Assembly: GCF_902168435.1 (NCBI RefSeq)
Contig: NZ_LR656165.1
Span: 310,001 to 374,000 of the forward strand
From: Bacillus marasmi
GTDB taxonomy: Bacteria > Bacillota > Bacilli > Bacillales > Cytobacillaceae
Direction of reading: 5' to 3'
Length of the DNA: 64,000 bases
The translations under genes were made by a program, and so were the position numbers. The notes below the pieces were generated by a model. It searched no databases. It worked only from the letters and a program-made list of their open reading frames with translations, and was not told the origin of the DNA. Below, in pieces: positions 14,901 through 56,276 of the stretch. Numbering within the stretch: the stretch's first letter is position 1; each line of letters starts with the position of its first letter.

Positions 14901-15760
14901 AAGTGCCCTAGTTTTCTAATTTAATCGAAATGAGGGTACTTAGATTTTTTAAGTACCCTCTTTTTGTTTTTCATTCGAAAAGAGGGCACTTAGGCTCCCT
15001 GTAAGCACCCTCATTTTCTACTTCAATCGAAATGAGGGTACTTAGCCATTTTATGTACCCTAGTTTTTTCCCATATTCGCAAAGAGGTCACTTAGGCTTC
15101 CTGTAAGTGCCCTCATTTTCTGCTTCAATCGAAATGAGGGTACTTAGCCATTTTATGTACCCTAGTTTTTTCCCATATTCGAAAAGAGGTCACTTAAGCT
15201 CCCTGTATGTGCCCTCATTTTCTGCTTCAATCGAAATGAGGGTACTTAGCCATTTTAAGTGCCCTAGTTTTTTCCCATATTCGAAAAGAGGTCACTTAAG
15301 CTCCCTGTATGTGCCCTCATTTTCTGCTTCAATCGATATGAGGGTACTTAGCCATTTTATGTACCCTAGTTTTTTCCCATATTCGAAAAGAGGTCACTTA
15401 GGCTCCCTGTAAGTACCCTCATTTTCTACTTCAATCGAAATGAGGGTACTTAGCCATTTTAAGTACCCTAGTTTTTTCCCATATTCGAAAAGAGGTCACT
15501 TAGACTTCCTGTATGTGCCCTCATTTTCTACTTCAATCGAAATGAGGGTACTTAGCCATTTTAAGTACCCTAGTTTTTTCCCATATTCGAAAAGAGGTCA
15601 CTTAGACTTCCTGTATGTGCCCTCATTTTTTGCTTCAATCAAAATTAGGGTACTTAGCCATTTTAAGTACCCTAGTTTTTTCCCATATTCAAAAAGAGGT
15701 CACTTAGACTTCCTGTATGTGCCCTCATTTTTTGCTTTCATATGAAATTAGGGCACTTAT
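14901..15760. repeat. Tandem array A: 17 units of the GTRCCCT...AGGGYACTTA family (50+52 bp dimer, 102 bp period)
   Basis: GTRCCCT-type starts occur at 14903, 14953, 15005, 15055, 15107 and on in strict 50/52 alternation to 15719. Each unit begins GTGCCCTC or GTACCCTA and ends GAGGGTACTTA or GAGGTCACTTA, so ends pair as hairpins within a unit and across junctions. Two spacer types alternate (ATTTTCTGCTTCAATCGAAA and a TTTTTTCCCATATTCGAAA form). Open frames here only reflect the period being a multiple of three. The array lies between convergent rpsD and the NERD gene. Other arrays of the family are at 32.1, 47.4 and 55.4 kb. Confidence 0.97.
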
Positions 15761-15803
15761 AGAGTAACTCTCTCATTTCATCGAGGATAAATCCCGATTA
15801 CGC

Positions 15804-16718
15804 TCATCCATAATAGGTCCATTTTCCATAACCAAATTGCTCATAATTATCCTTAAGTATTCTCCTTAGCCATTTTGATGAAATAGACAGCCGACACCAA
15901 TCAAAAACAATATTTGGAGTGAGTTTTAACTCTGGAAAAAGCAAACGGACTTCTTCAACTCCCCTTACTACCGCAGCTTCTATTTTTTCCTGATACCCAC
16001 AATCATAGCATACTAGTTTCCTTCCATGAATTTCGAGAAAGAATGAATTACATTTCCCGCAATTTAACCCCTTACGAACTGACCCGAATTGATAAGCTGG
16101 TAAATGCATCGATTCCGGCTCGGTAATATGTGCATTAAGTAAAAAATTAGCCAACTCAGTGTGAGTGTTATCTAAAAACGAAGGTTTTGCATTAAGCGAA
16201 CGCAGAAACCTATTGAGTTGGGTATAGTAAACGATTGGTTCGTCAACAGGGGCTTGGTATAAAAAGCATTCGGGGTTGATAAATATGACATTTCCTTCAA
16301 TTGGAATGTTAAAGCCATTCTTCTGGAGCAGTTTCGTAAGCAAAATTTTTATCCTATTTAATTGTTCAAGTGGATTTTGATAGATTCCATCAGTGGTGCA
16401 ATTATAGAAGTTTTTATTTTTGTAAATAAGATTTCCTTCGAAGTTTTTAATTTCATTGGGGATGATTGAATTCTGGGTGATGATGGTGGAATCAATTTGA
16501 AAGGTGGTATTGTCGCATTTTAGCAGCAAGTCATTTAATATGTAAAACTTATGATGTAGCCCGGCCCCCTCTACTAATTGATCAAACTGTACTTCACCTT
16601 GAAAACCTTTTTTTAAATTTAAATAGTGCTGCTTCTCGGTTTGGGTTAAGTCCATTCTTGCGTTTAAAATATGCAAAATTTTTAATTCGCTCGACTCTTC
16701 TCGATTTTTATAGGCCAT
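15804..16718 (-). CDS. NERD-domain protein with C-terminal zinc ribbon
   Basis: A 304-residue protein. The N-terminal part resembles the nuclease-related NERD domain: KGFQGEVQFDQLV (about 38-50), QIDSTII (about 74) and EIKNFEGNLIYKN (about 90) match the G-E-x-x-x-D, D and E-x-K pattern of restriction-like nucleases. The C-terminal part has four cysteines, CGKCNSF and CYDCGYQ (about 220-242), likely a zinc ribbon. NERD proteins are common in Bacillaceae, with largely untested roles in DNA handling. AGGAAG lies before the ATG. It stands alone between array A and tyrS. Confidence 0.8.
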   Translation of the reverse strand: MAYKNREESSELKILHILNARMDLTQTEKQHYLNLKKGFQGEVQFDQLVEGAGLHHKFYILNDLLLKCDNTTFQIDSTIITQNSIIPNEIKNFEGNLIYKNKNFYNCTTDGIYQNPLEQLNRIKILLTKLLQKNGFNIPIEGNVIFINPECFLYQAPVDEPIVYYTQLNRFLRSLNAKPSFLDNTHTELANFLLNAHITEPESMHLPAYQFGSVRKGLNCGKCNSFFLEIHGRKLVCYDCGYQEKIEAAVVRGVEEVRLLFPELKLTPNIVFDWCRLSISSKWLRRILKDNYEQFGYGKWTYYG

Positions 16719-16807
16719 AATCCACTTCCTTTCAACTTCATTATCTTTATTTTATAAAAATAATAATCATAATTCACTTGAACATTATGTGAATTTTCAA
16801 ACTAACA

Positions 16808-16838
16808 AACAGACCTCCCAAAAAAATTGAGAGGTCAA
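16808..16838 (-). terminator. Terminator after tyrS
   Basis: Stem GACCTCTC / GGGAGGTC (16812-16836) with an A/T loop. On the minus strand it is followed by TGTTTGTT, a modest T tract. Confidence 0.7.
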
Positions 16839-16850
16839 TCACTTAACAAT

Positions 16851-18152
<1,302 letters not shown>

Positions 18153-18182
18153 TCACTTGGTAGTAATTTTCCGCGGTGCATA

Positions 18183-18455
18183 GAGCACACAGCAAAAACA
18201 AAAAGACGCCCCTGCAAATTGCAGGGACGCCATAAGCGCGGTACCACCCAAATTAAAAACCATCAACGGTTTTTCACTCAATAAAATAACGGTTTAGACC
18301 GTTTGCTGCTAATGGTTATAGTTCAATGTTCACAGCAAATGCTTAGGGAGGTAATTCGTGCTTCTATTTGTACTGGCTCGCAGCTTCCGCCAGTTTTCTG
18401 TCAACAGGGATAGAAGAACTACTGGATTCCCATCATTGCAAATTATTCAATTCAT
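18183..18455 (-). ncRNA. T-box leader of tyrS
   Basis: On the minus strand the conserved antiterminator sequence GGGTGGTACCGCG lies at 18237-18249. It is followed by a terminator stem CCCTGCAA / TTGCAGGG (about 18209-18226) and a run of T. Uncharged tRNA-Tyr is expected to stabilise the antiterminator and switch tyrS on. The 5' boundary is approximate: a TTGACA at 18487-18492 is a possible -35 box, with no convincing -10. The specifier triplet could not be assigned with certainty. Confidence 0.9.
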
Positions 18456-18550
18456 TATTGTTTTTTTACCATAAATTAAGGGATGTTGTCAATTGCAGGA
18501 TGAGAATTAAAGGAAAATTGACGATGCTTGTCATTTTATCGGTTGCAATA

Positions 18551-18559
18551 TGCTATAAT
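18551..18559 (+). promoter_or_regulatory. Extended -10 promoter for the class A PBP gene
   Basis: TGCTATAAT is an extended -10 box (TGN plus TATAAT at 18554-18559). It lies 24 bases before the ATG chosen for the PBP. No good -35 lies at 17 bases; TTGTCA is at 18528-18533. It is divergent from the tyrS leader. Confidence 0.55.
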
Positions 18560-18583
18560 GTATGTGATTTTAGGGGGTTTGAT

Positions 18584-21397
18584 ATGCCAATGAACGAAAG
18601 CCAAAATTGGAAGGAAAAACTGAGGTCAGCCTTACAACTTTTTACAAATCAAAAAACCGTAAAAGGAGTTCGGATTACCTATCAGGTTATATGGAATTTG
18701 GGATTATTATTTTTTATTATTTTGATGGTTGGCGGTACTTTTGCCTTAGGTGTTGGCGGAGGCTACTTCGCATCATTAGTAAAGGACGAACCGATACGCA
18801 CCTATGCTAGCATGAAAAAACAAATTTATAACTACGAAGAAACATCGGAATTATATTTTGCTAATGACGTTTATCTCGGCAAGCTTCGCTCCGACATCGA
18901 TCGTGAGGAAGTTAAGCTCGACCAGGTATCTCAACATTTAAAGGATGCGGTTGTCGCAACGGAGGATGAATATTTTTATCAGCATGACGGGGTTGTTCCG
19001 AAAGCTATTTTCCGCGCCCTGTTTCAAGAGGTTTCAAATGCCTCCGTCCAAACCGGCGGTAGTACGTTAACACAGCAGTTAATTAAAAACCAATTGCTAT
19101 CCAACGAAGTATCCTTTGAACGTAAGGCAAAAGAAATATTATTGGCACTACGTTTAGAAAAATTCTTTGAAAAAGAAGAAATACTTGAAGCCTATTTGAA
19201 TGTTGCAACATTTGGCCGAAACTCATCAGGTCGAAATATTGCAGGTGTTCAAGCAGCTGCAAAAGGGATTTTTGGTGTAGAGGCAAGTCAACTCAGCTTA
19301 CCACAAGCAGCGTTCATTGCCGGTCTACCGCAAAGTCCATTTGGGTATACCCCATATACTCAAAACAAAACGATTAAAAACAACTTATCACCTGGTTTAG
19401 AACGGATGAAAACGGTCTTAAAACGAATGTTTGATGGCGGTTATATTACACAGCAGCAATATGATGAGGCACTTGCTTATGACATTACAAAGGATTTCAT
19501 CCCACCAAAGGAGAGCCCATCACAACAATATCCATATTTAACAACAGAAATCGAAAAGCGCTCAATTGAAATTTTGGCCGGAATTCTTGCTCAACAAGAT
19601 GGTTATGAAGAACAGGATCTAAAGGATGATAAAGAACTTAAAGCAGAGTATCTTGAAATCGCCAACCTGAATATTCGCCAAAATGGCTACAAAATTCATA
19701 CAACCGTTAACAAAGAAATTTATGATGCAATGCAGCAGGTAAAAAATAATTACCCTCACTTTGGTCCAGACAAGGCTCAGGAAACGACTGACCCTGAAAC
19801 AGGTGAAAAAGTAACGATTATGGAGCCAGTTGAAGTCGGCGCCATCTTAATCGAGAATAAAACAGGAAAAATCATAAGTTTTGTTGGTGGACGTGATTAT
19901 CAACGTGAGCAATTGAACCACGCGACAAGCGCTGTCCGTCAAAATGGTTCGACGATGAAACCACTTCTCGTTTACGCACCGGCATTCGAGCTTGGTGCAG
20001 CTCAACCTGGAACAATTTTACCGGATGTAGCCCTAAAGCTAGCACCTGGAATTAATCGTCCTTGGCCGCAAAACTATGACAGACGCTATAGCGGATTGAC
20101 GTCTGCACGACACGCTTTAACTAAATCGTATAACGTGCCAGCCGTTAAGCTATACAAGGACATCATCGCCCAAAGACCAGCAACATACTTGGAGAAAATG
20201 GGCTTCACTTCTCTAGTTGAACCGGATTATACAAACCTTGCTACAGCGATTGGTTCATTAGAAAATGGAGTTACCGTTGAGGAAAATACGAATGCTTTCG
20301 GCACATTCGCTAATGGTGGGAAATTTGTGGATGCCTACATGATCGAAAAAATTACTGACCGTGATGGCAATGCGATTTATCAACATGAGGTAAAAGAAAC
20401 CGAAGTATTCAGTCCACAAACATCGTATTTAACATTAGATATCATGCGCGACGTAATCACGAGAGGTACCGCCACTTCGATTAATAGCCGTCTAAAATTC
20501 AAATCTGACTGGGCTGGAAAAACAGGTACAGGGAACCAGTTCTATGATGCTTGGTTTGTCGCAACAAATCCGAATGTAACCTTTGGAATTTGGACAGGTT
20601 ATGACACACCAAAATCACTGCAAACTGGTGGACTAAGCTATAGTATCAGAACGAATTATTTATGGGCGGACTTAATGAATGCGGCCTATGATATTAATCC
20701 TGATTTAGTCGATCCTGCTGAATCCTTCCAAATGCCAAGCGGAATCGTTAGTCGTTCGTTTTGTGCAGCTTCAGGAGGACTTCCTTCAGATGCTTGCTCA
20801 AAAGCTGGTTTAGTTGAAACTGATTTGTTCAATATTAAATACGCACCTACTAAAGGTGATGACAGCCTGATTTCAGGGAAATTTGTTGAAATCGGTGGGA
20901 AGAAATATGTAGCACTAGATTCAACACCAGCAGAATTTTCAGAGTCAGGCGTGATATTAAACCCTGATTATGTTGCAAAAATGATGGGAACAACAAATAA
21001 TGCAGCTCAATTAATACCTAAAATGGACCGTTGGGCAAATGTGTTAGTTGCTGATGCTAAAATAAACGAAGATGGCAATAAGCCAACTCCATTAAATATT
21101 TCACTTTCTGGTAATAATGTTTCCTGGGGCGCTCACCCACATGGTGATATCGTTGGTTATCGTGTTTACCAAAATGGAGCTGGTAAAGTACTGAGCATTA
21201 AGTCTGGGGCTGCCCTTTCGTTTACGGGAGGAACAGGTGGATCCTATTATGTAACTGCAGTGGATATTGCCGGAAATGAATCCGGACCATCTAATACAGT
21301 CACAATTGGGGTACCGGAACAGCAAACTCAAACTCAAACTAAATCAAATCCGAAAAAACAGGAAAATACTATTCCTGATCCAATGACGAATCCATAG
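18584..21397 (+). CDS. Class A penicillin-binding protein with C-terminal fibronectin-like domain
   Basis: A 937-residue bifunctional peptidoglycan synthase anchored by one helix (about 38-62). Glycosyltransferase motifs are ATEDEYFYQHDG (Glu127) and GGSTLTQQLIKNQLL (about 158-172). Transpeptidase motifs are STMK (Ser456-Lys459), SYN (515-517) and KTG (646-648). From about residue 830 an Fn3-like segment (ISLSGNNVSW, YYVTAVDIAGNESG) and a Gln/Thr/Pro tail follow. The first in-frame ATG, at 18368, lies in the tyrS leader and upstream of the promoter; the ATG at 18584 has AGGGGG at good spacing. It is similar to the PBP2D/PBP1A group; the exact paralogue is uncertain. Confidence 0.93.
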   Translation: MPMNESQNWKEKLRSALQLFTNQKTVKGVRITYQVIWNLGLLFFIILMVGGTFALGVGGGYFASLVKDEPIRTYASMKKQIYNYEETSELYFANDVYLGKLRSDIDREEVKLDQVSQHLKDAVVATEDEYFYQHDGVVPKAIFRALFQEVSNASVQTGGSTLTQQLIKNQLLSNEVSFERKAKEILLALRLEKFFEKEEILEAYLNVATFGRNSSGRNIAGVQAAAKGIFGVEASQLSLPQAAFIAGLPQSPFGYTPYTQNKTIKNNLSPGLERMKTVLKRMFDGGYITQQQYDEALAYDITKDFIPPKESPSQQYPYLTTEIEKRSIEILAGILAQQDGYEEQDLKDDKELKAEYLEIANLNIRQNGYKIHTTVNKEIYDAMQQVKNNYPHFGPDKAQETTDPETGEKVTIMEPVEVGAILIENKTGKIISFVGGRDYQREQLNHATSAVRQNGSTMKPLLVYAPAFELGAAQPGTILPDVALKLAPGINRPWPQNYDRRYSGLTSARHALTKSYNVPAVKLYKDIIAQRPATYLEKMGFTSLVEPDYTNLATAIGSLENGVTVEENTNAFGTFANGGKFVDAYMIEKITDRDGNAIYQHEVKETEVFSPQTSYLTLDIMRDVITRGTATSINSRLKFKSDWAGKTGTGNQFYDAWFVATNPNVTFGIWTGYDTPKSLQTGGLSYSIRTNYLWADLMNAAYDINPDLVDPAESFQMPSGIVSRSFCAASGGLPSDACSKAGLVETDLFNIKYAPTKGDDSLISGKFVEIGGKKYVALDSTPAEFSESGVILNPDYVAKMMGTTNNAAQLIPKMDRWANVLVADAKINEDGNKPTPLNISLSGNNVSWGAHPHGDIVGYRVYQNGAGKVLSIKSGAALSFTGGTGGSYYVTAVDIAGNESGPSNTVTIGVPEQQTQTQTKSNPKKQENTIPDPMTNP

Positions 21398-21722: not shown

Positions 21723-21931
21723 GATTTGCACAACTTTTCTGTGATATGCACAGGAAATAGAGGATATGCTTCATTTGAAAAAATATATGATACAACTTTT
21801 TGGATATATGCACGACTTTTAAAATATATGCACAACTTTTAATAGGCTCCTAAAAATTATGCACAGAAAAATCAGGATATGCACACAAATATGCATTTAT
21901 GAACACATTTAGCATGATATGCACAACCCGA
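21723..21931. repeat. Cluster of degenerate ATATGCACAACTTTT motifs
   Basis: About ten copies of a short motif are scattered here: TTTGCACAACTTTT, ATATGCACAGGAAA, ATATGCACGACTTTT, ATATGCACAACTTTT, ATATGCACACAA, ATATGCACAACCCG and others. Spacing varies from about 14 to 40 bases. No open frame of note. The stretch 21498-21722 before it is AT-rich with no clear signal. It is followed by GGTGCCTGTCACC at 21938-21950, another short motif often seen between Bacillaceae genes. Confidence 0.6.
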
Positions 21932-32048: not shown

Positions 32049-32065
32049 ACATGACTAGCGATGAG

Positions 32066-32104
32066 GAGTCACATGAAACTTTGTGTTCATGTGGCTTTTT
32101 TATA
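32066..32104 (+). terminator. Rho-independent terminator after the M29 peptidase
   Basis: Stem AGTCACATGAA / TTCATGTGGCT followed by TTTTTTA. Confidence 0.88.
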
Positions 32105-32115
32105 TTAGTTTATTA

Positions 32116-32366
32116 GTGCCCTGTTTTTGTGGGGAGCTTAAAATTAGGGTACTTAGCTTCGTTCTATGTTACATCTTTTTGGCAGTGACCTAAATCTAGG
32201 GCACTTAACACTGGTCTATTGTGACCTATTATTGGTGAGTATCGAAATTTAGGGCACTTAAACTCTCTAAGTGACCTCTATTTGGTGGATACCGAAATAT
32301 AGGGCACTTAGCACCACTCTATGTGCCCTCATTTTACAAAAATCTAAAAAATAGGTAACTTAAATC
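32116..32366. repeat. Tandem array B: 5 units of the GTRCCCT...AGGGYACTTA family
   Basis: Unit starts at about 32116 (GTGCCCTG), 32167 (GTTACATC), 32221 (GTGACCTA), 32271 (GTGACCTC) and 32323 (GTGCCCTC); each ends AGGGTACTTA, AGGGCACTTA or AGGTAACTTA. Unit length is 50-54 bp. More diverged than array A. It lies between the terminators of two convergent genes (the peptidase and murC). Confidence 0.9.
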
Positions 32367-32394: not shown

Positions 32395-32441
32395 AACAAA
32401 AAACAAAGGATGCAGCGCCCCCAAGGCACTGCATCCTTTTT
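32395..32441 (-). terminator. Rho-independent terminator after murC
   Basis: Eleven-base stem AAAGGATGCAG / CTGCATCCTTT (32406-32416 and 32430-32440), then TTTGTTTTTTG on the minus strand. Confidence 0.9.
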
Positions 32442-33917: not shown

Positions 33918-36749
33918 TTAGTTTATTGTACTACTACTATTCAATGAGTCAAGTTCTTCTTCAGTAATTAATACATCTCGGGGTTTGCTCCCTTTTGCTT
34001 CAGAGATATAACCATTTGAATGCATCATATCTATTAAACGAGCAGCTCGGTTATAGCCAATTTTAAAGCGACGCTGCAAGCTAGATGTGGAAGCAACTCC
34101 CTGTTCAACAATAAATTCACAGGCTTCAAAGAACAACTCATCCTCATCTTCCATTACTTGAGCTTTCTTTAAAAGCTCGCCCTGCTCAAATAAATAATCC
34201 GGTTCGGCTTGTGAACGTACATGCTCAACAACGTCATCAATTTCCGTATCAGAAATATATGTACCTTGTAGCCTAACTGGCTTAGAAGTACCATTTTCTA
34301 AAAATAGCATATCGCCTCGACCTAATAATTTTTCAGCACCGGCGATATCGATAATCGTCCTTGAATCGATTTGCGAGGATACTGAAAAAGCAATCCTTGT
34401 TGGGATATTTGCCTTAATTAATCCTGTAATAACATCAACAGATGGGCGCTGTGTCGCAATAATTAGGTGAATCCCGCAGGCGCGCGCTTTTTGGGCGATG
34501 CGGCAAATTGCTTCTTCTACATCTCCAGGTGCAACCATCATTAAATCAGCAAGCTCATCAATCACGATTAGGATATATGGCAGTTTGTCGCTATAGCGCT
34601 TAGCTTCCTCAGCCAACTCATTAAAGCGGGAGATTTCTCGTACACCAGTATGAACGAACAGTTCATAACGCCGTTCCATTTCCTCAACAGCCCATTTCAA
34701 GGCAGCAGTTGCCGCTTTCACATCAGTGATAACCGGGCTAACTAAGTGAGGAATATAATTGTATGGCGCAAGCTCAACCATCTTTGGATCGATTAATAAT
34801 AACTTCACCTCGTGCGGATCAGCTTTGTACAACAGGCTCGTTAAGATTGAGTTAATACATACACTTTTTCCTGAGCCTGTCGCTCCGGCAATCAACCCGT
34901 GCGGCATTTTACGAAGATCCGTCACAACTGGTTTTCCCGAAATATCAAGACCGAGCGCAGCTGTTAACGGCGACTGATTGTTTTTGAATTCTGGGCTTGA
35001 GATAATTTCGCTTATGAATACTGGTCGACTCTTTCCATTCGGCACTTCAATTCCTATCGTATGCTTTCCAGGAATTGGCGCCTCAATGCGAATATCCTTT
35101 GCTGCTAAACTTAACTTAATATCATCTTGCAAATTAGTGATTTTATTTACCTTTACACCAGGGTCAGGTTGTACTTCAAATCTTGTCACGGACGGGCCTT
35201 GTGTTACATTGACTACCTTAGCACCTACGTTAAAATCATTCAGTGTCCGATTCAGAAGCTCCTCCTGCGATAGAAGCCATTCATCGTTTTCTTCCTGAAT
35301 GACAGGTGGTGTAAGCAATTGTGTTTCTGGATATTGATAGTTTAACGGTTCGTAAAACGTTTCTTGTTTTTGTTGTGGTTCTGATGCAACTTCCTTTGCG
35401 TCGTTTACAAAATCCTGTATTTCATGTTCATTATTATTAGCATCCACATTTACAGGACTTTTTACTTGTGGTTCGTTCACAAGATTTTGATTCGTTAATT
35501 TTAGACGATCCTGTTTAAGCATTATGACATTAAATGGAATGTGGGATTTTGTAACGTGCTGTTCATTCATGGTTTCATGGTGGCCTTCGTCCGTTACATG
35601 AACGGTTGTTTCAGTTTCAACTATTTTTGGTTGTTGTTCTTGAATTGGAAACTTAATGATTTTTACAGGTTCGGCTTGTTTTTCTAAAACAATTGGCTCA
35701 ACTACTTTAGGTTCAATTTCCTTACTGCTTGATGGTGGAGCTATTATGGATTCTGTTAGTTCTTCTCGTTCAATTAACTCAACATCCTCAGCATGAACCT
35801 CCTCAACAATAAGCGGTGCTTCTTCCTTTTGTGCTTCTAGTTGTTCATTAAGCTCAATTCCCTCTGCATGAACCTCCTCAACAATAAGCGGTGCTTCTTC
35901 CTTTTGTGCTTCTGGTTCATTAAGCTCAACTGCTTCTGTTTGAAGCTCCTCTACAATAGGTTGTGCTTCTTCGATTTGTGCTTCTGGTTCATTAAACTCA
36001 ACTGCTTCTGTTTGAAGCTCCTCTACAATAGGTTGTGCTTCTTCGATTTGTGCTTCTAGTTCATTAAGCTTAACTTCTTCTGCTTGAAGCTCCTCTACGA
36101 AAGGCTTGACACTCTCTTCGGTGTTTACTTCACTGGTCGGTGCTGGCTCCACCGTTTCAAGACTGGCAGCTATTTCTTCTTCCTGTCTAGTCGGGATGTG
36201 ATCAAAAAATCCAGTTAATTCATGTTCAATAATCTTGTTTTGCCGCGACTGTGGTCTTTCATAACCATAAATCGGTGAAGGGATTTCGGTAGGTCGAAAT
36301 GGACCATAGCGGATTCGCTCTGTTTTTGCTTTTTCTTTAGCTTTAGCTTTTGCTTTTGCTTTCTCCTGCAGCTGTTCTGTTTCAACTTCAGGAACAGGCT
36401 TCACGATCTCCTCAGCTTGTTTTATTTTCTCCTGACGTGGTCGAAAGCGCCTTAAAGACTCAAGACTGTCTACACGGCTTTCTTGACCAAGCGTTTCTTT
36501 CTTAATTTGATGTTGAGTGTTAATTTGACGTGGCGGCCGATTCTCTTTTTTCTTAAGAACATCTCGAACAAGTGGTGTTTGATTAGCACCTTTCGGATAT
36601 TGATAAGCGATTCTTCCATTAACATCCTTCGGTCCTTCTTGTTGCTTGTCAAGCTTTCTCCGTAAAACCTGCTGCTTCTCCTCTTTTTCTTGCTTATGCT
36701 CGTCAGTGTCCTCTTTAAAAACATGAAGTATTTTTTTAAACCAATCCAA
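33918..36749 (-). CDS. sftA: DNA translocase SftA (FtsK/SpoIIIE family, soluble)
   Basis: A 943-residue septum-associated DNA pump that moves trapped chromosome away from the closing division site. Unlike SpoIIIE it has no membrane helices. The first 450 residues are a long, charged, low-complexity linker with an in-frame repeat (about 220-330). The motor follows: Walker A GATGSGKS (about 620), [28 protein letters not shown]. The C-terminal gamma domain ([30 protein letters not shown], from about 870) reads DNA orientation signals. Length and layout match SftA (YtpT) of B. subtilis. Confidence 0.96.
35755..36095 (-). repeat. In-frame internal repeats of the SftA linker (23-25 residues)
   Basis: Four consecutive units begin [15 protein letters not shown] or [15 protein letters not shown] and continue to NEP, NEQ or IE. 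The first two are almost identical, as are the last two in their first half. A looser copy ([13 protein letters not shown]) precedes them. The DNA repeat is about 72 bp and nearly exact in places, so copy number may vary between strains. Confidence 0.85.
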
Positions 36750-37707: not shown

Positions 37708-37708
37708 G

Positions 37709-47342: not shown

Positions 47343-47410
47343 TTGTGCGGTGCTCCTTCATTAGAATTGGATATATTTTGCTATGTGGACAGAGGCATAC
47401 ACCTTTTTAC

Positions 47411-47658
47411 GTGACGCTTTTTGGTTTGATTTTGGAATAAAGGACACTTAGAAAGATTATAAGTGCCCTCTTTTACATTGGTTTCTGAATATAGGTAACT
47501 TAGAGCCATTATAAGTGCCCTCTTTTACATTGGTTTCTGAATATAGGTAACTTAGAACACTTATAAGTGCCCTCTTTTGCTCTGAACTCTGAAAACAGGT
47601 AACTTAGAACACTTATAAGTGCCCTGTTTTGCTCTGAACACTGAAAAAAGGGCACTTA
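47411..47658. repeat. Tandem array C: 5 units of the GTRCCCT...AGGGYACTTA family (52 bp)
   Basis: Unit starts at 47411, 47463, 47515, 47567 and 47619, an exact 52 bp period. Units run GTGCCCTCTTTT... to AGGTAACTTA. The last unit ends GGGCACTTA at 47650-47658, and its final TTA is the reverse complement of the dat stop codon TAA. This array lies between co-directional genes (thpR and dat), unlike the other three. Confidence 0.95.
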
Positions 47659-48528
47659 TCTATCAATTTCCAAATAAATCCGCCCACATTGCCGCGCAAT
47701 CTCTGAAGCTAACAGCTGCTGCAATTTAATTGAGATGCTACCAGGCGCACCTGTTCCAATCTTCCGCCCAGCGATCTCGATGATTGGGGTTACCTCAGCT
47801 GTAGTGCTTGTCATAAAGACCTCATCCGCATTCAGTAGCTCCTCGACCGTAAAGCTTTTCTCTTCAAAGGCAATTGAATGGACTCCACACAATGCCAGCA
47901 TCTGCTGACGCGTAATTCCGTTCAAAATATACTTATCTGCCTGATGAGTATAGACAACGCCATCTTTCACAATTGAAATATTCGAGGAGCTACCCTCGGT
48001 TACCGTTTCACCCCGATGCAGAATCGCTTCAAAGCAGCCCAATTCAGCTGCCTCCTGTTTTGCTAAAATATTTCCTAATAAATTCAAACTCTTAATATCA
48101 CACTTAAGCCAGCGCTCATCCTCGACTAATGCTGCCTTAACACCGTTCGTGATATTGTGAAGGGGGCGCGGTAATTCCTTCGTATAGGCGATAAAGGAAG
48201 CCACCGTATCTGTTGTTGGGAATGCGTGATTTCGAACCGCTACACCCCTGGAACTTTGCAAATAAACAATTCCAGTCGTAAGAGCATTCTTTTCGATCAA
48301 AGTCTGGAGCATCGTTTGAATATCGGTATTCGAAAACGGCAAGGTAAGCTTGATTTTTCCCGCACATTCAACTAAGCGTTCTAAATGCTCGCTTGCTGCA
48401 AACATTTTGCCATTGTAAACACGAATCACTTCATAAATGCCATCTCCAAATTGATAGCCTCTATCCTCGATATCAACCTTTGCTTCGTTCCGTTCCACAA
48501 ATTGACCGTTCACCATCACAATATTCAT
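47656..48528 (-). CDS. dat: D-alanine aminotransferase Dat
   Basis: A 290-residue fold-type IV PLP enzyme that interconverts D-amino acids and keto acids, notably D-alanine and D-glutamate for the wall. The PLP lysine is in CDIKSLNLLGN (Lys146); DRGYQFGDGIYEV, EGSSSN and TSTTAEVTPI fit the D-amino acid branch. AAGGAG lies about 10 bases before the ATG. Its TAA stop lies inside the end of repeat array C. Six bases after pepV, in one operon. Confidence 0.95.
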   Translation of the reverse strand: MNIVMVNGQFVERNEAKVDIEDRGYQFGDGIYEVIRVYNGKMFAASEHLERLVECAGKIKLTLPFSNTDIQTMLQTLIEKNALTTGIVYLQSSRGVAVRNHAFPTTDTVASFIAYTKELPRPLHNITNGVKAALVEDERWLKCDIKSLNLLGNILAKQEAAELGCFEAILHRGETVTEGSSSNISIVKDGVVYTHQADKYILNGITRQQMLALCGVHSIAFEEKSFTVEELLNADEVFMTSTTAEVTPIIEIAGRKIGTGAPGSISIKLQQLLASEIARQCGRIYLEIDR

Positions 48529-50312: not shown

Positions 50313-50423
50313 CTCTATTTCAAAAAACTGTTCTATTTAGCCCATGAATAAGAAAGGAGAATTTGTCCGAATAAACACAAAAGATTAATATTTTGTTAAA
50401 ATCATGTTGATTAAGTAGAAATT

Positions 50424-50452
50424 TTGAAAAAACAGGGGTACAATTATATTAG
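50424..50452 (+). promoter_or_regulatory. Possible SigA promoter for ytzE
   Basis: TTGAAA (50424-50429) and TATTAG (50447-50452), 17 bases apart. It would give a leader of about 138 bases before the ytzE TTG. The leader is an open frame but has no binding site for an earlier start. Confidence 0.45.
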
Positions 50453-50597
50453 AATCATCGACATCGTAGATATGCCAATAAGGAAAGTAAAGGAGTTGTC
50501 TGCAGAGGGAAAACTACATATGTTGAAGTCATACTTCATGAGCCAGTCGGATGCAGGTATTTGCCACGGGTTTGAAAAAAGGATAGGGAGTGGTTTT

Positions 50598-50819
50598 TTG
50601 AAACCTTCGACTAACCGGATGCTAAACCGTATCAAATCCATCTATATGTTTATTAAGAAAAATGGGACCGTATCGACACAGGATCTAGTTGAGGAATTTG
50701 GAATTACGCCTCGCACGATTCAAAGAGATTTAAATGTTTTGGCTTACAATGACCTAGTAGAAAGTCCCAGCCGCGGCAGATGGACAACAACTCATAAAAA
50801 GGTAAAGATATCTTCATAA
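50598..50819 (+). CDS. ytzE: DeoR-type HTH regulator YtzE
   Basis: A 73-residue DNA-binding protein made almost only of one DeoR-type helix-turn-helix (GTVSTQDLVEEFGITPRTIQRDLNVL, given here in parts: helix 2 at QDLVEEFG, recognition helix at TPRTIQRDLN). The TTG at 50598-50600 has AGGGAG about 7 bases upstream and reproduces the N-terminus of B. subtilis YtzE (KPSTNRML). The longer frame from 50424 begins inside the promoter and is rejected. Targets are unknown. Confidence 0.87.
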   Translation: MKPSTNRMLNRIKSIYMFIKKNGTVSTQDLVEEFGITPRTIQRDLNVLAYNDLVESPSRGRWTTTHKKVKISS

Positions 50820-50885
50820 TTAATTGCGGAAACACCGCGATGCGTTGACAAACTATTAACTAAAAAGACAAATAATTTACAAAAA

Positions 50886-50918
50886 ATAGAAATCGTCCAT
50901 TTGGGCGATTTCTTTTAT
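50886..50918. terminator. Bidirectional terminator between ytzE and the RsuA-type gene
   Basis: Stem AGAAATCG / CGATTTCT with inner CC/GG pair, T run on the plus side and A run on the minus side. It overlaps the stop codon of the pseudouridine synthase. Confidence 0.8.
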
Positions 50919-51634
50919 TCTGGTTTAAAGGTTATGAGTTGTTCAATTTCGTCCTCGGTCAATTCGCGATATTCTCCCAGTTCGAGCTCTTCATCAAGCT
51001 TTAAAGGCCCCATCGTCATTCTTTTTAAATAAACAACACGCTTTCCAACTGCCTGAAACATCCGCTTCACCTGATGAAATTTCCCTTCAGTAATCGTCAA
51101 TTCAATTTCAGATCGAATGCCGCTTTTCAGAATGCTTAATTCCCCAGGCTTTGTAAAATAGCCATCATCCAGCGTGACACCTTTTTTAAAGGCTTCTACA
51201 TCTTCCTCTGTTACAACACCGTCAATCACCGCATAATACATTTTCGGAACATGTTTTTTCGGTGAAAGCAGCTGGTGTGCCAATTGCCCATCATTCGTTA
51301 ACAACAGCAATCCTTCCGTATCCTTGTCCAGACGTCCAACCGGAAACGGCTCATAAACCGCATCATTCATTTCCAATAAATCAATTACCGTTTCGTCTCG
51401 GGTATCTTCTGTCGCTGAAATCACCCCAGGTGGCTTGTTCATCATTAAATAAATGTATTGGCGATATTCGATCACTTCTCCATTCAGCGTCACTATATCA
51501 TTGTCAGTGTCGACATGCTGCTTGGCATCTTTAATGACGCCATCGTTGATTTTAACAGCACCAGATTTCAGTAATTGCTTGACTTCTTTTCGACTTCCAA
51601 AACCTAGGTTAGCTAACATTTTATCAATTCTCAT
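50915..51634 (-). CDS. 16S rRNA pseudouridine synthase (RsuA family)
   Basis: A 239-residue enzyme of the RsuA/RluB/E/F family, expected to make pseudouridine 516 in 16S rRNA. An N-terminal S4 domain (MRIDKMLANLGFGSRKEVKQ) binds RNA, and the catalytic motif is VGRLDKDTEGLLLLTND (Asp103). MMNKPPG and PKMYYAVIDG are also typical. GGAGG lies before the ATG. Corresponds to ytzG in B. subtilis. Convergent with ytzE and sharing its terminator. Confidence 0.93.
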   Translation of the reverse strand: MRIDKMLANLGFGSRKEVKQLLKSGAVKINDGVIKDAKQHVDTDNDIVTLNGEVIEYRQYIYLMMNKPPGVISATEDTRDETVIDLLEMNDAVYEPFPVGRLDKDTEGLLLLTNDGQLAHQLLSPKKHVPKMYYAVIDGVVTEEDVEAFKKGVTLDDGYFTKPGELSILKSGIRSEIELTITEGKFHQVKRMFQAVGKRVVYLKRMTMGPLKLDEELELGEYRELTEDEIEQLITFKPE

Positions 51635-51744
51635 CTTATCCCTCCTTACATTCTAAAAATTACTTAGGCAATCGCCTATACCAAACCATTCATACCACAT
51701 AGACTGTTATCATGTTTACCCAATAAATACATGGAGATGATTAT

Positions 51745-51993
51745 ATGATGGATTACAGACAACAACAATTCCCGTTCCCTGGTGGCTTTCCTGGTGGTGG
51801 CCCCGGAAACGTTGACCGTCGCCTTGACAGACTGGACCGCCGTGTTGACCAGCTTGAAAGACAATTGAATCAATTAGATCGTCGTCTTGACAGAATTGAG
51901 CGCCGATTAGGAATTAGAGAAGATCAACAACAACCACAACAAGTACCAGTGCAATATCCACCACAGCTTCCACACCACGGCTATTATTATTAA
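51745..51993 (+). CDS. Small protein with RLDRLDRR heptad repeats
   Basis: An 82-residue protein. After a Gln/Phe/Pro/Gly-rich start (FPFPGGFPGGGPGN), residues 23-56 form a regular heptad pattern, DRRLDRLDRRVDQLERQLNQ and DRRLDRIERRLG, with Leu, Val or Ile at a and d positions: a short parallel coiled coil. The tail is rich in Gln, Pro, Tyr and His and ends YYY. GGAG lies 8 bases before the ATG. The composition resembles spore-coat or surface-associated small proteins, but there is no direct evidence. A strong terminator follows, which supports expression. Confidence 0.8.
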   Translation: MMDYRQQQFPFPGGFPGGGPGNVDRRLDRLDRRVDQLERQLNQLDRRLDRIERRLGIREDQQQPQQVPVQYPPQLPHHGYYY

Positions 51994-52009
51994 GGCTTAC
52001 ACTTAGACA

Positions 52010-52066
52010 GCATGCCCCATTTAATCCATCAACCAACGGATTAAATGGGGCATTATTATTTTGGGG
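52010..52066 (+). terminator. Strong terminator after the heptad-repeat gene
   Basis: Sixteen-base perfect stem ATGCCCCATTTAATCC / GGATTAAATGGGGCAT, then TATTATTTT. Confidence 0.92.
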
Positions 52067-52124
52067 CGAAAATTAATCTTTATTTATATAAGACCGTGTT
52101 AATGGACAGTGCTAATTTTTACCG

Positions 52125-52262
52125 CGTTGATCTTCACTGCAGGCACGTAGACTCCTATGGGAGTAGCTGGCATGGGAGACCCCACAGGCGCAAAGCGCCG
52201 AGGAGGCTCCCAGTTAGCCCCATGAACCGCACGTGCCTGAAGTGGAAATCATTCTTATTTTA
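52125..52262. repeat. Palindromic GGCACGTG...GAAGTGGAAATCA element
   Basis: Outer arms CTTCACTGCAGGCACGT (about 52135) and ACGTGCCTGAAGTGGAAATC (about 52233) enclose nested arms CTGGCATGGGAGAC, GGCGCAAAGCGCC and GAGGCTCCCAG. This CGCAAAGCGCCGAGGAGGCTC core is a hallmark of a repeat family seen between genes in many Bacillus genomes. Non-coding; it abuts the end of ytgP. Confidence 0.82.
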
Positions 52263-52269
52263 AAAAATC

Positions 52270-53886
52270 TTAAAAAGGTAATCTTAGCTTTCTTTTCACA
52301 GAATGAGCTCTTTGACCAAACAATAAGTAGACAAGCTTAGACCGATAAGCTAAATAAATATAAATCCCCGCACCCACCAATGCTGTTAGTCCAATAATCA
52401 CTAACGATTGGAACTTGGAGTCCGGTGATAAAAATAATAAAGATAGTTTAAATGTAAGGAATGCGCCTACTAGCATCGCAAGCGTGAACGCAACAATCAA
52501 CAATGATCTGCGTACAACAAAACGAAATGGATAGCGAGCAAACTTTTTAATCACAAACAAATTAATCAAGATTGCCGCACTATAGCCTAATGCAGTTGCC
52601 ATGACTGCTCCGTTTGTTTCAAACAGCTTAATTAACGGGATATTTAAGCTTAATTTTACCAAAAGGCCGACCAAAAGGCTCAAGATCGTAAAGCGCTGTT
52701 CATTAATCCCCTGTAGTATCGCTGCTGTAACTGAATATAACGCAAACAGTATCGCTACTGGTGCATAAGCGCGAAGAACTTCTGTTCCTAATTCCTTGTG
52801 CTCATAAAAGACGGTATAAACAGGTTCGGCTAACAGCGACAAACCGACAACTGCCGGCAGCGTTAAAAATAGCATCACCTGGAAGGTTTGATTTAACTGA
52901 CGGAATAATTCCTTGCGATTCTTTTCCACGAACGCCTTCGTTACACTTGGAACAAGCGTTAATGAGAATGCTGTCGCTAAGGAAACTGGTATGATCACCA
53001 ATTTATGCGATTCGAAGTTCAAGACGCTTAGGGCAAACTCTGTTTCTTTCGCTAGTCCAATTGCAACCATTGCTTTGTTAAACGTTAATTGGTCAATTAA
53101 TTGAAACAACGGATTAGCAATCCCAACAAATACAAATGGTGCAGCGTAGATGAGTACCTCTTTATAAATTTGCGGCAGTGAAATTTGAACTGTTCCTTTA
53201 TCTTGTAGTAGCAATTCATCCAAAAATGGCTTTCTTTTAAACCAATACCAAAATAAAACGAATAAACTACCGATGGCGCCAATAAATGCTGCGAATGTCG
53301 CAACACTGACAGCAGTTACAAGACTGCCATCCATAATATGTATTACAACAAAAGCCCCCGCTAATACAAAGGCAATCCGCACGATTTGCTCAACAACTGT
53401 CGAAACGGCCGATGGCCCCATTGATTGATGTCCTTGGAAAAAACCACGAATCAAGCTCATAAACGGAACGACAATTAACGCAAAGCTAACCGCCCGAATA
53501 ACTGTAATGACATCCTTTGTACTCGATACTTGATCCTTATCCTCAATGACCATATCAGCCAGCATCGGGGCTGAAAAATATAACACTAAAAAAGCCACAA
53601 TTCCAGTCGTTAACATGACCACTAAACCAGATTTAAATAGTTTACGCCCAACGGCATATTCCTCAAGTGCATTGTATTTCGCGATAAATTTAGAAACCGC
53701 AAGCGGAACCCCTGCAGTTGCAATGCTGATGAAAATGGTATATGGTACGTAGGAATATTGGTACAGGATTGCGCCCTGATAACCAACAATCGCATAAAAC
53801 GGGATAACATAAAATAAGCCTAACACCTTTGATATTATCGTACCTAATGTGAGAATAAACGTTCCTCTTAAAAGCTTTGACGACAT
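52270..53886 (-). CDS. murJ: Lipid II flippase YtgP/MurJ (MOP superfamily)
   Basis: A 538-residue integral membrane protein with about 14 predicted helices, of the SpoVB/MurJ polysaccharide exporter family. The start GTFILTLGTIISKVLGLFYV and basic loops such as RLSKFI-like AVSKFIAKYN fit. B. subtilis YtgP flips lipid II across the membrane, in parallel with Amj. GAGGG lies 5-7 bases before the ATG. SpoVB paralogues are similar, but synteny with ytfP and leuS supports YtgP. Confidence 0.9.
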   Translation of the reverse strand: MSSKLLRGTFILTLGTIISKVLGLFYVIPFYAIVGYQGAILYQYSYVPYTIFISIATAGVPLAVSKFIAKYNALEEYAVGRKLFKSGLVVMLTTGIVAFLVLYFSAPMLADMVIEDKDQVSSTKDVITVIRAVSFALIVVPFMSLIRGFFQGHQSMGPSAVSTVVEQIVRIAFVLAGAFVVIHIMDGSLVTAVSVATFAAFIGAIGSLFVLFWYWFKRKPFLDELLLQDKGTVQISLPQIYKEVLIYAAPFVFVGIANPLFQLIDQLTFNKAMVAIGLAKETEFALSVLNFESHKLVIIPVSLATAFSLTLVPSVTKAFVEKNRKELFRQLNQTFQVMLFLTLPAVVGLSLLAEPVYTVFYEHKELGTEVLRAYAPVAILFALYSVTAAILQGINEQRFTILSLLVGLLVKLSLNIPLIKLFETNGAVMATALGYSAAILINLFVIKKFARYPFRFVVRRSLLIVAFTLAMLVGAFLTFKLSLLFLSPDSKFQSLVIIGLTALVGAGIYIYLAYRSKLVYLLFGQRAHSVKRKLRLPF

Positions 53887-53910
53887 ATAATCCCTCTTTA
53901 CACCGAGAAG

Positions 53911-53966
53911 CTGTAGCGCCAGAATCCAGTTAGGACAATGGTTGCAGGTGCGCCTGAGCTAGACAG
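53911..53966 (+). repeat. Remnant of the GCTAGACA dispersed element
   Basis: TGTAGCGCCAGAATCC and GGTGCGCCTGAGCTAGACAG resemble the two ends of the element at 50158-50312 with most of the middle deleted. Confidence 0.5.
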
Positions 53967-54100
53967 TAATCAATTTTACTATTATTCTTGACAGAAAAAA
54001 TCACTCTAATTTTGTATTTTATCATAAGTTGTCGAAGACTACGGTGTTTTTTAGTATTTTTTCATATATAAAAAGATTAATTTATGGTTGGTGAAAACAA

Positions 54101-55384
54101 ATGCTATTTGATGTAATTGTAATTGGTGGAGGCCCTTCCGGATTGATGGCGGGAATCGCCGCAGCTGAACAAGGCCGGCAAGTGCTCCTTGTCGATAAAG
54201 GCGATAAGCTTGGTCGCAAGCTGGCCATTTCCGGAGGAGGACGCTGCAATGTCACGAACAGACTTCCCGTTGCAGAAATAATTAAGCACATTCCAGGCAA
54301 TGGTCGATTTTTACATAGTGCCCTTTCTATTTTTAGCAATGAGGATATCATTTCATTTTTTGAAAAGCTTGGAGTTGAGCTAAAGGAAGAAGATCACGGC
54401 CGCATGTTCCCGGTTAACGATTCCGCCCAGTCCGTTGTCGATGCCCTGATTCGTCGCCTAGATGAACTCGGAGTCAAACGGTGGACGAATTGCCCGGTTA
54501 AGACTGTTGAGTATGATGACGGTGGCGTCGCATCAGTGGTATTGCATAATGGTGAAGTCGTTGAGGCTCGGGCAGTGGTCATTGCTGTTGGTGGAAAATC
54601 AGTCCCACATACCGGCTCGACTGGCGATGGCTACGCCTGGGCAAAGAAAGCTGGTCACACGATTACCGAACTTTATCCAACTGAGGTTCCCTTAACCTCA
54701 GCTGAACCTTTTATTAAAAGTAAGACATTGCAGGGCTTGTCATTGCGAGAGATTGCTTTAAGTGTATTGAATGCGAAAGGAAAACCGCTGATTACACACA
54801 AAATGGATATGATTTTCACTCATTTCGGGGTTAGCGGCCCCGCCGTCCTCCGCTGCAGTCAATACGTTGTTAAAGAAATGAAAAAAACTGGTCTTGGTGA
54901 AGTGGTGATGAGCCTTGACGCTGTGCCGGATCGTAATGAAGAAATGTTGTTTCAAGATGTGATGAAAATAGTGAAATCAGAGCCGAAAAAAGCATTAAAA
55001 AATAGCTTAAAGGGCATTTTACCAGAACGTTATTTAATGTTTTTACTAGAGCAAAATGAGCTTGATCCGCTTGGTGTGGGTGCGACAATTCCGCATGATA
55101 AGATTCGTAGCTTCGTCGCAAGCTGCAAACATTTTCAATTTCGCGTGAACGGAACCCTTCCGCTCGAAAAAGCATTCGTTACCGGCGGTGGCGTGTCAGT
55201 TAAAGAAATCGAGCCACAAACGATGGCTTCACGTAAAATGAACGGTCTCTATTTTTGCGGTGAAATCCTCGACATTCATGGCTATACCGGCGGCTACAAT
55301 ATAACCTCCGCGCTAGTAACTGGCCGACTAGCAGGTTTGAACGCTGGGAAATTTGCCGCTTCTTCTGGATGGCAGGCAGAGTAA
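54101..55384 (+). CDS. ytfP: NAD(P)/FAD-dependent oxidoreductase YtfP (BaiN/HI0933 family)
   Basis: A 427-residue flavoprotein. The FAD-binding Rossmann motif is at the start ([20 protein letters not shown]), followed by the family signature [16 protein letters not shown] (about 46-61). C-terminal motifs are [11 protein letters not shown] and [15 protein letters not shown]. The family's natural reaction is poorly known; some members reduce bile-acid-like or other unsaturated compounds. GGTG lies 8 bases before the ATG. Divergent from ytgP, followed by repeat array D without a clear classical terminator. Confidence 0.9.
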
Positions 55385-55419
55385 ACACTGGATTACTTTC
55401 CGCTTTCTTGTGGTAATAA

Positions 55420-56276
55420 GTGACCTATTTTTGGATAAAAAGCTATTTGAGGGTACTTAGGCGTTGGTTATTTGCCCTATTTTTGGTAGGAAATCAATTT
55501 GAGGGTACTTAGCCCTTCTATGCACCCTCTTTTTTGTTGACCAACAATTTGAGGGTACTTAGGCGTTCTATGTACCCTAATTTTGGTTGACCAACAATTT
55601 GAGGGCACTTAGGCATGGTCTATGTACCCTATTTTTGGTTGACCAACAATTTGAGGGCACTTTGCCGTTCTATGTACCCTATTTTTGGTTGGGCGATCAA
55701 TTTGAGGGCACTTAGGCGTGGTCTATGTACCCTATTTTTGGTTGACCAACAATTTGAGGGTACTTAGCCGTTCTATGTACCCTAATTTTGGTTGGGCGAT
55801 CAATTTGAGGGCACTTAGGCGTGGTCTATGTACCCTATTTTTGGTTAATCAACAATTTGAGGGTACTTAGGTGTTCTATGTACCCTATTTTTGGTTGACC
55901 AACAATTTGAGGGCACTTAGACGTGGTCTATGTACCCTATTTTTGGTTGACCAACAATTTGAGGGCACTTAGGCGTGGTCTATGTACCCTATTTTTGGTT
56001 AACCAGCAATTTGAGGGTACATAGCCGTTCTATGTACCCTATTTTTGGTTGACCAGCAATTTGAGGGTACTTTGCCGTTCTATGTACCCTATTTTTGGTT
56101 GACCAGCAATTTGAGGGTACTTAGGCATGTTCTATGTACCCTATTTTTGGTTGACCAACAATTTGAGGGCACTTAGGCGTGGTCTATGTACCCTATTTTT
56201 GGTTAATCAACAATTTGAGGGTACTTAGCCGTTCTATGTACCCTATTTTTGTTCGGCAATCAATTTGAGGGCACTA
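55420..56276. repeat. Tandem array D: 17 units of the GTRCCCT...AGGGYACTTA family (50-53 bp)
   Basis: Unit starts at 55420, 55471, 55522, 55572, 55624, 55674, 55727 and on to 56238. The consensus is TATGTACCCTATTTTTGG, TTGACCAACAATTTGAGGG, then YACTTAGGCGTGGTC or YACTTAGCCGTTC; the two junction forms differ by two or three bases and account for the 50/52-53 steps. The first three units are the most diverged. It lies between convergent ytfP and the Cse60-like gene. Spacers are shared rather than unique, so it is not a CRISPR array. Confidence 0.97.

What the first reader, a model, noticed from the sequence alone, without database searches (positions are those of the whole stretch)
14901..56276. 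Four tandem arrays of one hairpin repeat family (GTRCCCT...AGGGYACTTA, 50-54 bp)
Arrays at 14901-15760, 32116-32366, 47411-47658 and 55420-56276 hold 17, 5, 5 and 17 units. All share the same ends and unit size, while the inner 25-30 bases differ between arrays but are conserved within an array. Each unit end pairs with its start, and each junction AGGGYACTTA-N6-12-TAWGTRCCCT forms a compact hairpin. Within-array homogenisation with between-array divergence suggests local expansion of seeds spread over the genome. I do not know this family by name.
Basis: partly seen in the sequence, partly recalled or inferred. Interest (0 to 1): 0.78.

Follow-up and report, generated by a model that had tools for sequence, protein, structure and literature searches.

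The report
52-bp palindromic satellite arrays in Bacillus
Four stretches of tandemly repeated DNA between genes of a Bacillus relative belong to a known but unexplained class of bacterial satellites whose repeat is always about 52 letters long, and the part of the repeat that evolution keeps looks more like a paired docking site for a protein than like a folded RNA.

Summary
The four arrays are real. The module is 43 bp, an imperfect palindrome (TAAGTnnCCTnnTTT-N13-AAAnnAGGnnACTTA), joined mostly by 7- or 9-bp linkers (period 50-52). At least 17 such arrays lie in this 4.64-Mb genome. The family was found in 2 of 193 family genomes at a strict threshold (this one and Bacillus sp. DNRA2), and as one decayed array in a third species. 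Nine of the 17 arrays have a same-dialect array at the matching site in DNRA2, though flanks are only about 70-89% identical. Half-sites are as alike between arrays (85%) as within them, while the centre is at chance between arrays (26%): ends and spacing look constrained. Pairing does not covary, which favours a double-stranded protein site over an RNA hairpin. None of the arrays lies between divergent genes. The same contig holds ten further sites with 51-53 bp arrays of other sequence. This is the published class of '52-nt constant-size tandem repeats' of Bacillus (Subirana & Messeguer); kind known, function unknown. In two cases a matching gap in a sister species carries a different dialect. 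Best guess, moderate confidence: helically phased palindromic binding sites for a lineage-specific DNA-binding protein. No such protein was identified.

The parts
14900..15759 (+). Array W1: 17 units of 43-44 bp, linkers alternating 7 and 9 bp (102-bp dimer), between rpsD (+) and a NERD-domain gene (-)
32113..32362 (+). Array W2: 5 units, between an M29 peptidase gene (+) and a Mur ligase gene (-); array at the matching site in Bacillus sp. DNRA2 (L092)
47408..47658 (+). Array W3: 5 units (first degenerate), 9-bp linkers, between two minus-strand genes; the last TTA of the array is the stop codon (TAA) of the minus-strand ORF 47656-48528
55417..56277 (+). Array W4: 17 units, between an HI0933-like gene (+) and a small minus-strand ORF 56317-56556; arrays at the matching site in DNRA2 (L091) and, decayed, in G002 (L111)
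14811..14848 (+). Terminator-like hairpin after rpsD, before array W1
32063..32100 (+). Terminator-like hairpin before array W2; a minus-strand one at 32405-32439 lies on the other side

Best explanation
Identity: these are members of the 52-nt constant-size tandem repeats (satellites) of Bacillus and other Firmicutes; this part I hold at about 0.95. Mechanism (inferred): each 43-bp module is a palindromic double-stranded binding site, two half-sites TAAGTnnCCTnnTTT facing each other around a free centre, for a lineage-specific dimeric DNA-binding protein. Modules repeat about every 52 bp, close to five helical turns, so bound dimers line up on one face and can bind cooperatively or polymerise. 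The arrays sit in gaps at gene 3' ends and would act as chromosome-organising or insulating platforms. Unequal crossing-over or slippage changes copy number and homogenises the unselected centre, while selection keeps half-sites and pitch. Shown: anatomy, pattern of conservation, lack of covariation, retention at matching sites, gene context. Inferred: the protein, its cooperativity and the chromosomal role.
For: Half-site identity 85% between 397 array pairs and 85% within arrays; centre 26% between arrays (chance 25.6%) and 59% within, 39% between 8 pairs at matching sites. One vote per array: no covariation over the 10-bp half-sites across junctions (P 0.43) or within units (P 0.96), n = 29 arrays. 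Arrays are made of whole modules: of 58 scans just outside the outermost units of 29 arrays, 4 show a partner half-site with at most 2 mismatches (about 2 expected), and two of these (L091, L098) are outer units the finder missed. Nine of 17 arrays have same-dialect arrays at matching sites in DNRA2. Ten further sites on the same contig carry arrays of other sequence with the same 51-53 bp period. An inverted dyad at P <= 0.05 against shuffles in 25 of 44 consensus repeats: 9 of 22 from these genomes (6 of the 22 are this family, 3 of them significant) and 16 of 22 of the 27 printed in PMC8161180 Table 1. At 18 array sites on the contig a script finds 7 convergent, 11 codirectional, 0 divergent gaps; convergent enriched P 0.004, divergent depleted P 0.015. 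PMC8161180 (main text read) describes the class and itself suggests a protein that polymerises on the repeats.
Against: No binding protein was found, and none was searched for beyond Y1 transposases. Different dialects in one genome would need several proteins or one with loose specificity. Linkers of 6 to 19 bp occur, so phasing is not strict. Half-site conservation is partly favoured by the finder (at most 6 mismatches of 20). Six of eight folded pieces fold better than shuffles, and PMC8161180 and PMC8625621 report transcription of such repeats in B. coagulans, which fits RNA models. At six other matching DNRA2 loci no repeat was found, so single arrays are dispensable over time. Thirteen of the 22 own consensus repeats show no significant dyad.
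Confidence: 0.45

Rival explanations
1. Neutral or selfish satellite: arrays arise by slippage or unequal crossing-over in tolerant 3' intergenic gaps. The constant length comes from the amplification mechanism (some replication or repair intermediate of about 52 bp), not from function.
For: Within-array homogenisation; 102-bp dimer amplification; absence from divergent gaps; arrays gained or lost between species.
Against: Half-sites equally alike between and within arrays while the centre is at chance; whole-module array ends; 9 of 17 retained at matching sites.
Confidence: 0.27
2. RNA-level element: arrays are transcribed into chains of hairpins that terminate transcription, protect 3' ends, or act as small RNAs or protein sponges.
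For: Arms complementary by consensus; six of eight folded pieces better than shuffles, z -2.3 to -6.1; 9 terminator-like sites in the W1 region against 1.3 expected, 8 of them in the array; RNA-seq reads reported for B. coagulans 52-nt repeats (PMC8161180; PMC8625621 passages).
Against: No covariation within units or at junctions; array 3 pair z +0.33 and array 4 unit z -1.0; W4 region 1 terminator-like site against 1.4 expected, and only one weak site inside W2; W1 and W2 lie beyond ordinary terminators.
Confidence: 0.13
3. BIME-2-like role: arrays at converging transcription units bind a topoisomerase such as DNA gyrase or another general nucleoid protein and manage supercoils.
For: Enrichment in convergent gaps; tandem palindromic arrays at 3' ends as recalled for BIME-2 of E. 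coli (from memory, no call).
Against: A conserved protein such as gyrase does not explain why this repeat was found in only 2 of 193 family genomes or why several dialects share one genome.
Confidence: 0.1
4. REP-like mobile element moved by a RAYT (Y1 transposase).
For: Small intergenic palindromes; two Y1_Tnp genes in this genome.
Against: The two genes are flanked by other palindromes (GGGGACTGTCCCC; GGTGCCTGTCACC), with no unit in L102 and only 6-mismatch matches in L103; Y1_Tnp genes occur in all 5 genus genomes, also those without this repeat; every copy that one search listed (0-1 mismatch) lies in an array.
Confidence: 0.04

Closest known systems
52-nt constant-size tandem repeats of Bacillus (Subirana & Messeguer 2021, PMC8161180, main text read; their 2020 J Bacteriol paper is cited there and not held)
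   Same: Period 51-53 with free sequence, several families per genome, short signals and their reverse in one repeat, non-coding, species-restricted, in Bacillus and other Firmicutes.
   Different: Period here alternates 50/52 because linkers alternate 7/9. I did not see this repeat in their Table 1 (supplements not read). Not in that main text: module boundaries, half-site versus centre conservation, covariation test, matching sites between species, gene-context test.
REP/BIME elements and RAYT transposases (PMC3733652, passages read)
   Same: Small extragenic palindromes, sometimes in clusters.
   Different: No GTAG tag in the consensus ends, no RAYT of this genome flanked by this repeat, arrays with a fixed pitch.
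Centromere-like iteron arrays such as sopC of plasmid F (43-bp direct repeats, each with an inverted repeat; recalled, no call)
   Same: Tandem array of fixed-length units each holding a palindromic site for a dimeric protein.
   Different: Here at least 17 chromosomal arrays of one dialect plus others; no partner protein known; array 1 has no plasmid match.

Membership tests
52-nt constant-size tandem repeats of Bacillus | Repeat length 51-53 nt, constant | tested here: met
   Window TRF periods 50, 52 and 102; other arrays on the contig 51-53.
52-nt constant-size tandem repeats of Bacillus | At least four repeats per array | tested here: met
   17, 5, 5 and 17 units in the window. Five of the 17 family arrays have only 3 units (L079, L081, L083, L088, L090) and would fall below the published cut-off.
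52-nt constant-size tandem repeats of Bacillus | Several families of different sequence but equal length in one genome | tested here: met
   Contig C16 holds ten further sites with 51-53 bp arrays of other sequence; several of these resemble each other.
52-nt constant-size tandem repeats of Bacillus | Short signal sequences and their reverse in the same repeat | tested here: met
   Inverted half-sites in this family; dyads at P <= 0.05 in 25 of 44 consensus repeats.
52-nt constant-size tandem repeats of Bacillus | Restricted to one or a few related species, Bacillus or other Firmicutes | tested here: met
   2 of 193 family genomes at E <= 1e-7 and 2 of 61 relatives at E <= 0.001, own genome included in both.
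REP/RAYT elements | GTAG tetranucleotide at one end | tested here: not met
   Consensus ends are TAAGT and ACTTA.
REP/RAYT elements | A RAYT gene flanked by the repeat | tested here: not met
   Both Y1_Tnp genes of G000 carry other palindromes.
Structured RNA family (Rfam) | Match to a known family; covariation in stems | tested here: not met
   At gathering thresholds only two T-box matches in the window; no covariation.
MITE | Target-site duplications around the element | tested here: inconclusive
   Linkers of a few arrays read by eye differ from each other; not tested systematically.
CRISPR array | Identical repeats with unique spacers and cas genes | tested here: not met
   The whole unit is repeated, with no unique spacers; cas genes not searched.

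The most novel reading that the evidence does not exclude
One chromosome carries many 52-bp-pitch satellite arrays written in several coexisting dialects (TTA, CATAG, GATAG, CAA and others around a shared GG-nn-AY half-site core). Each would be read by its own member of a rapidly diversifying family of DNA-binding proteins that polymerise in phase with the helix and give chromosomal regions an address; positions are kept while the dialect at a position can be exchanged, as two matching gaps between sister species suggest.
Probability: 0.13. Interest if true: 0.87.

Novelty: new member of a known kind. Interest (0 to 1): 0.5.

Why it matters
The 52-nt repeats have been called enigmatic by their discoverers, who left open a protein-based and an RNA-based role. 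The species pair found here (this genome and Bacillus sp. DNRA2), with arrays at shared positions, separates conserved from free positions. It favours a double-stranded protein site for this dialect and supplies a defined 43-bp probe with mutant controls for finding the protein.

Tried and rejected
Hairpin selection: rejected as the main constraint because neither pairing scheme covaries. With all distinct junctions counted, a weak global excess appeared (2 of 1000 permutations); it was not seen within arrays (205 of 1000) or with one vote per array. RAYT mobilisation: rejected. Phage or plasmid origin: array 1 has no plasmid match and array 4 no phage match (only these two pairs were run); one viral contig with a single copy (L165) was not followed up. 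Named-genome scan: 13 stretches; I read parts of four (L066, L070, L071, L076), and only the two of DNRA2 showed arrays; the other nine were not read. A tenth matching site in DNRA2 (L085) was counted at first and withdrawn on re-checking: the gap between its matched flanks holds the second dialect, not this one. Replacement by 21-nt arrays at secA-terC and at the L080 locus in G002 was suspected and dropped, because those arrays seem to lie at the far end of the neighbouring gene (position reasoning by hand). CIRCE/HrcA-like geometry was considered from memory and not pursued.
Full report
OBSERVATION. The four arrays exist as described, with slightly different ends: 14900-15759, 32113-32362, 47408-47658 and 55417-56277, holding 17, 5, 5 and 17 units. 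Tandem Repeats Finder gives periods of 50-52 and 102 bp. The unit is TAWGTRCCCT-N23-AGGGYACTTA, 43 bp, with linkers of 7 or 9 bp and one of 10. In the whole genome (4.64 Mb, 46 contigs, draft) the 43-bp pattern with up to 3 mismatches has 109 forward and 103 reverse matches, against 0 and 0 for the reversed control; the pattern is nearly palindromic, so most places count on both strands. The listing was cut after 0-1 mismatch, and every listed place lies in an array.

EXTENT. A covariance model from 30 units (R1) leads to at least 17 arrays of this family in the genome: four in the window and thirteen elsewhere (one search scored only 150 candidates, so weaker arrays may be missing). L089 rests on one R1 match plus units from the looser finder. 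Chained units over 29 arrays of two species number 191: 144 of 43 bp, 46 of 44, 1 of 42; linkers 118 of 9 bp, 24 of 7, 10 of 8, 3 of 6, 3 of 17 and one each of 10, 11 and 19. The finder accepted only 42-44 bp units and at most 6 mismatches of 20, and a few spaces of 27, 55 and 61 bp remained in L101, L086 and L089.

DISTRIBUTION. In the genus (5 genomes held) only this genome and G004 reach E <= 1e-5; 2 of 61 relatives at E <= 0.001 and 2 of 193 family genomes at E <= 1e-7 match, own genome included. The two larger scans used stricter filters and lose weak matches; the decayed array of G002 below was not seen by them. Contig lengths identify G004 as Bacillus sp. DNRA2. In G002 the locus of array W4 carries a decayed 3-unit array with 52-bp steps (L111). 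It is the only one with a match among 31 loci fetched from G001-G003 as homologues of array sites; not all of these were checked to span the same gap, and the secA loci of G001 and G003 plainly have another downstream gene. Array 1 against plasmids and array 4 against phages gave nothing.

MATCHING SITES. Flank comparison shows same-dialect arrays at corresponding places in DNRA2 for 9 of 17: L078/L095 (right flank only), L081/L096, L083/L101, L086/L127, L087/L094, L088/L093, L089/L099, W2/L092 and W4/L091. Flanking DNA there is about 70-89% identical. For L085 the gap between the two matched flanks in DNRA2 holds an array of a second dialect and no R1 match, in a rearranged region with first-dialect arrays 1.5-3.5 kb away. 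Six more G000 arrays had a matching DNRA2 locus without R1 match or TRF array (L079, L080, L082, L090, W1, W3; orthology of L090 unverified); L084 had no hit. So many arrays predate the species split, and others were gained, lost or exchanged since.

WHAT IS CONSERVED. Over 29 arrays the consensus is TAAGTnnCCTnnTTT-N13-AAAnnAGGnnACTTA. Ten-bp half-sites are 85% identical between 397 array pairs and 85% within arrays. The A/T part is 65% and 82%. The central bases are 26% between arrays (25.6% expected from composition) and 59% within; for 8 pairs at matching sites the figures are 86%, 69% and 39%. The centre has lost all similarity between arrays while half-sites have not, which is what selection on half-sites and spacing would give. 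Arrays consist of whole modules: of 58 scans outside the outermost units, 4 show a partner half-site with at most 2 mismatches (about 2 expected from random sequence), two of them outer units that the finder missed.

PAIRING. In the 30-unit alignment 76.9% of stem cells pair, against 77.4% when 3' letters are shuffled among sequences and 35-50% when slid: the arms are complementary by consensus but do not covary. With one vote per array, junction half-sites pair 0.793 against 0.790 by permutation (P 0.43), and within-unit halves 0.748 against 0.770 (P 0.96). With all distinct junctions a weak excess was seen over global permutation (2 of 1000) but not within arrays. Of eight pieces folded, six beat shuffles (z -2.3 to -6.1, from arrays 1, 2 and 4) and two do not (array 3 pair +0.33, one array 4 unit -1.0). 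Terminator-like sites exceed expectation in the W1 region (9 against 1.3, one of them the rpsD terminator) and in the W2 region (3 against 0.2, two of them outside the array) but not in W4 (1 against 1.4); W3 was not scanned. Folding potential thus exists, but its letters are not kept in pairs; a double-stranded palindromic site read by a protein explains this better than an RNA hairpin.

CONTEXT. By ORF order the 17 arrays lie in 9 convergent, 8 codirectional and 0 divergent gaps (ORF calls, not curated genes). For all 18 array sites of any dialect on contig C16, a script finds 7 convergent, 11 codirectional, 0 divergent; against intergenic base pairs convergent is enriched (P 0.0044) and divergent depleted (P 0.015). 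That script scored W4 as codirectional through a likely spurious ORF; the small minus-strand ORF 56317-56556 makes it convergent. Mapped on G002, 10 of 14 placed arrays fall within 340 kb, which none of 20000 random placements reached (L084 and L085 unplaced, L090 dropped as ambiguous).

THE LARGER CLASS. Tandem Repeats Finder on the whole 423-kb contig shows that the family is one dialect among several. Ten other sites (one with 2 copies only) carry arrays of other sequence, all with periods of 51-53 bp, for example 129284-130132 (16 copies), 258691-259642 (18), 386624-387300 (13) and 419484-420502 (20) in contig coordinates; several of them resemble each other. The homologous 400 kb of G002 hold three arrays of period 52, and 380 kb of G001 none of period 51-53. 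One of the G002 arrays (209762-209943 in its 400 kb) lies between the matched flanks of the G000 site 258680-259700, but with another dialect (GGTAACGATCA..TGATCGTRCCC there, GGGCACCAT..CTATGGTTACC here; flanks 72% and 90%). Of 16 C16 sites with both flanks found in G002, this and W4 are the only two where I find a 52-bp array. DNRA2 has a second dialect of period 53, CGTTACCYCT-N20-AGGGGTAACG, with no exact match in the other four genus genomes. Many dialects keep a GG-nn-A(C/T) half-site core and change the bases next to the linker on both sides, so the dyad stays symmetric (read by eye). A dyad at P <= 0.05 is found in 25 of 44 consensus repeats: 9 of 22 from these genomes (6 of the 22 are the present family, 3 of those significant) and 16 of 22 published ones, out of 27 printed. 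Related dialects are not independent.

WHAT IS KNOWN. This is the class of 52-nt constant-size tandem repeats in Bacillus, PMC8161180 (all five parts of the main text read; supplements not). That paper reports 1886 repeats of 51-53 nt in 176 genomes, several families per genome, short signals with their reverse in one repeat, partial conservation of position between B. coagulans strains, and two ideas of function, nucleoid protein or transcribed RNA. PMC8625621 (passages only) reports transcription in B. coagulans. The 21-nt arrays seen here fit its other class. The 2020 paper was not held. Two searches for later functional work (listings only) showed nothing that explains the class; two 2025 papers that hold the DOI of the 2020 paper were not read.

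MECHANISM AND CONFIDENCE. I take each module as a palindromic site for a lineage-specific dimeric protein, with about 52 bp (five turns) as the pitch that aligns neighbours. The identity of the class is near certain; the mechanism is inference at about 0.45, with a neutral satellite as the main rival. No protein candidate was found, because whole gene sets could not be compared here. Re-checking lowered the matching sites from 10 to 9 and added two dialect exchanges; I left the odds as they were.

Noticed in passing
G000 contig C16 outside the window: 129284-130132, 153144-153607, 157194-157541, 207404-208845, 258691-259642, 378841-379166, 386624-387300, 410451-410800, 419484-420502 and a 2-copy one at 146917: Further tandem arrays of other sequences, all with a 51-53 bp period, in the same 423-kb contig.
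   Followed up: partly
G000 C16 258680-259700 against G002 C1 about 1169762-1169943: Matching gap in two species with 52-bp arrays of different dialect, a possible dialect exchange at a kept position.
   Followed up: partly
window 56613-56711; L022 about 2500-2660; C16 190019-190132; G002 loci L114 and L132: Arrays of about 21 bp (or 42 bp) units, fitting the published 20-21 nt class; copies beyond terC and beside the L080 locus seem to be at corresponding places in G000 and G002.
   Followed up: partly
L070 3935-4122 and 7271-7453 (Bacillus sp. DNRA2): A second dialect of period 53, CGTTACCYCT-N20-AGGGGTAACG, near arrays of the first; no exact match in the other four genus genomes.
   Followed up: partly
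L102 and L103 (G000 C27 and C4): Two Y1-transposase genes flanked by their own short palindromes (GGGGACTGTCCCC and GGTGCCTGTCACC), REP-like pairs unrelated to this finding.
   Followed up: partly
window 47656-47658: The end of array W3 supplies the stop codon of the neighbouring minus-strand aminotransferase-like ORF.
   Followed up: no
window 18220-18445 and 59852-60071, minus strand: Two T-box leaders (Rfam RF00230).
   Followed up: no
window 35762-36098: 72-bp repeats, 4.6 copies, inside the long minus-strand ORF 33918-36749, so probably a coding repeat.
   Followed up: no
window 21780-21842: Three copies of a 20-bp AT-rich unit (AAAATATATGCACAACTTTT); its reverse complement recurs at C16 41440-41500.
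   Followed up: no
L165 9184-9212 (viral contig): A single junction-like palindrome in one IMG/VR contig, possibly chance.
   Followed up: no
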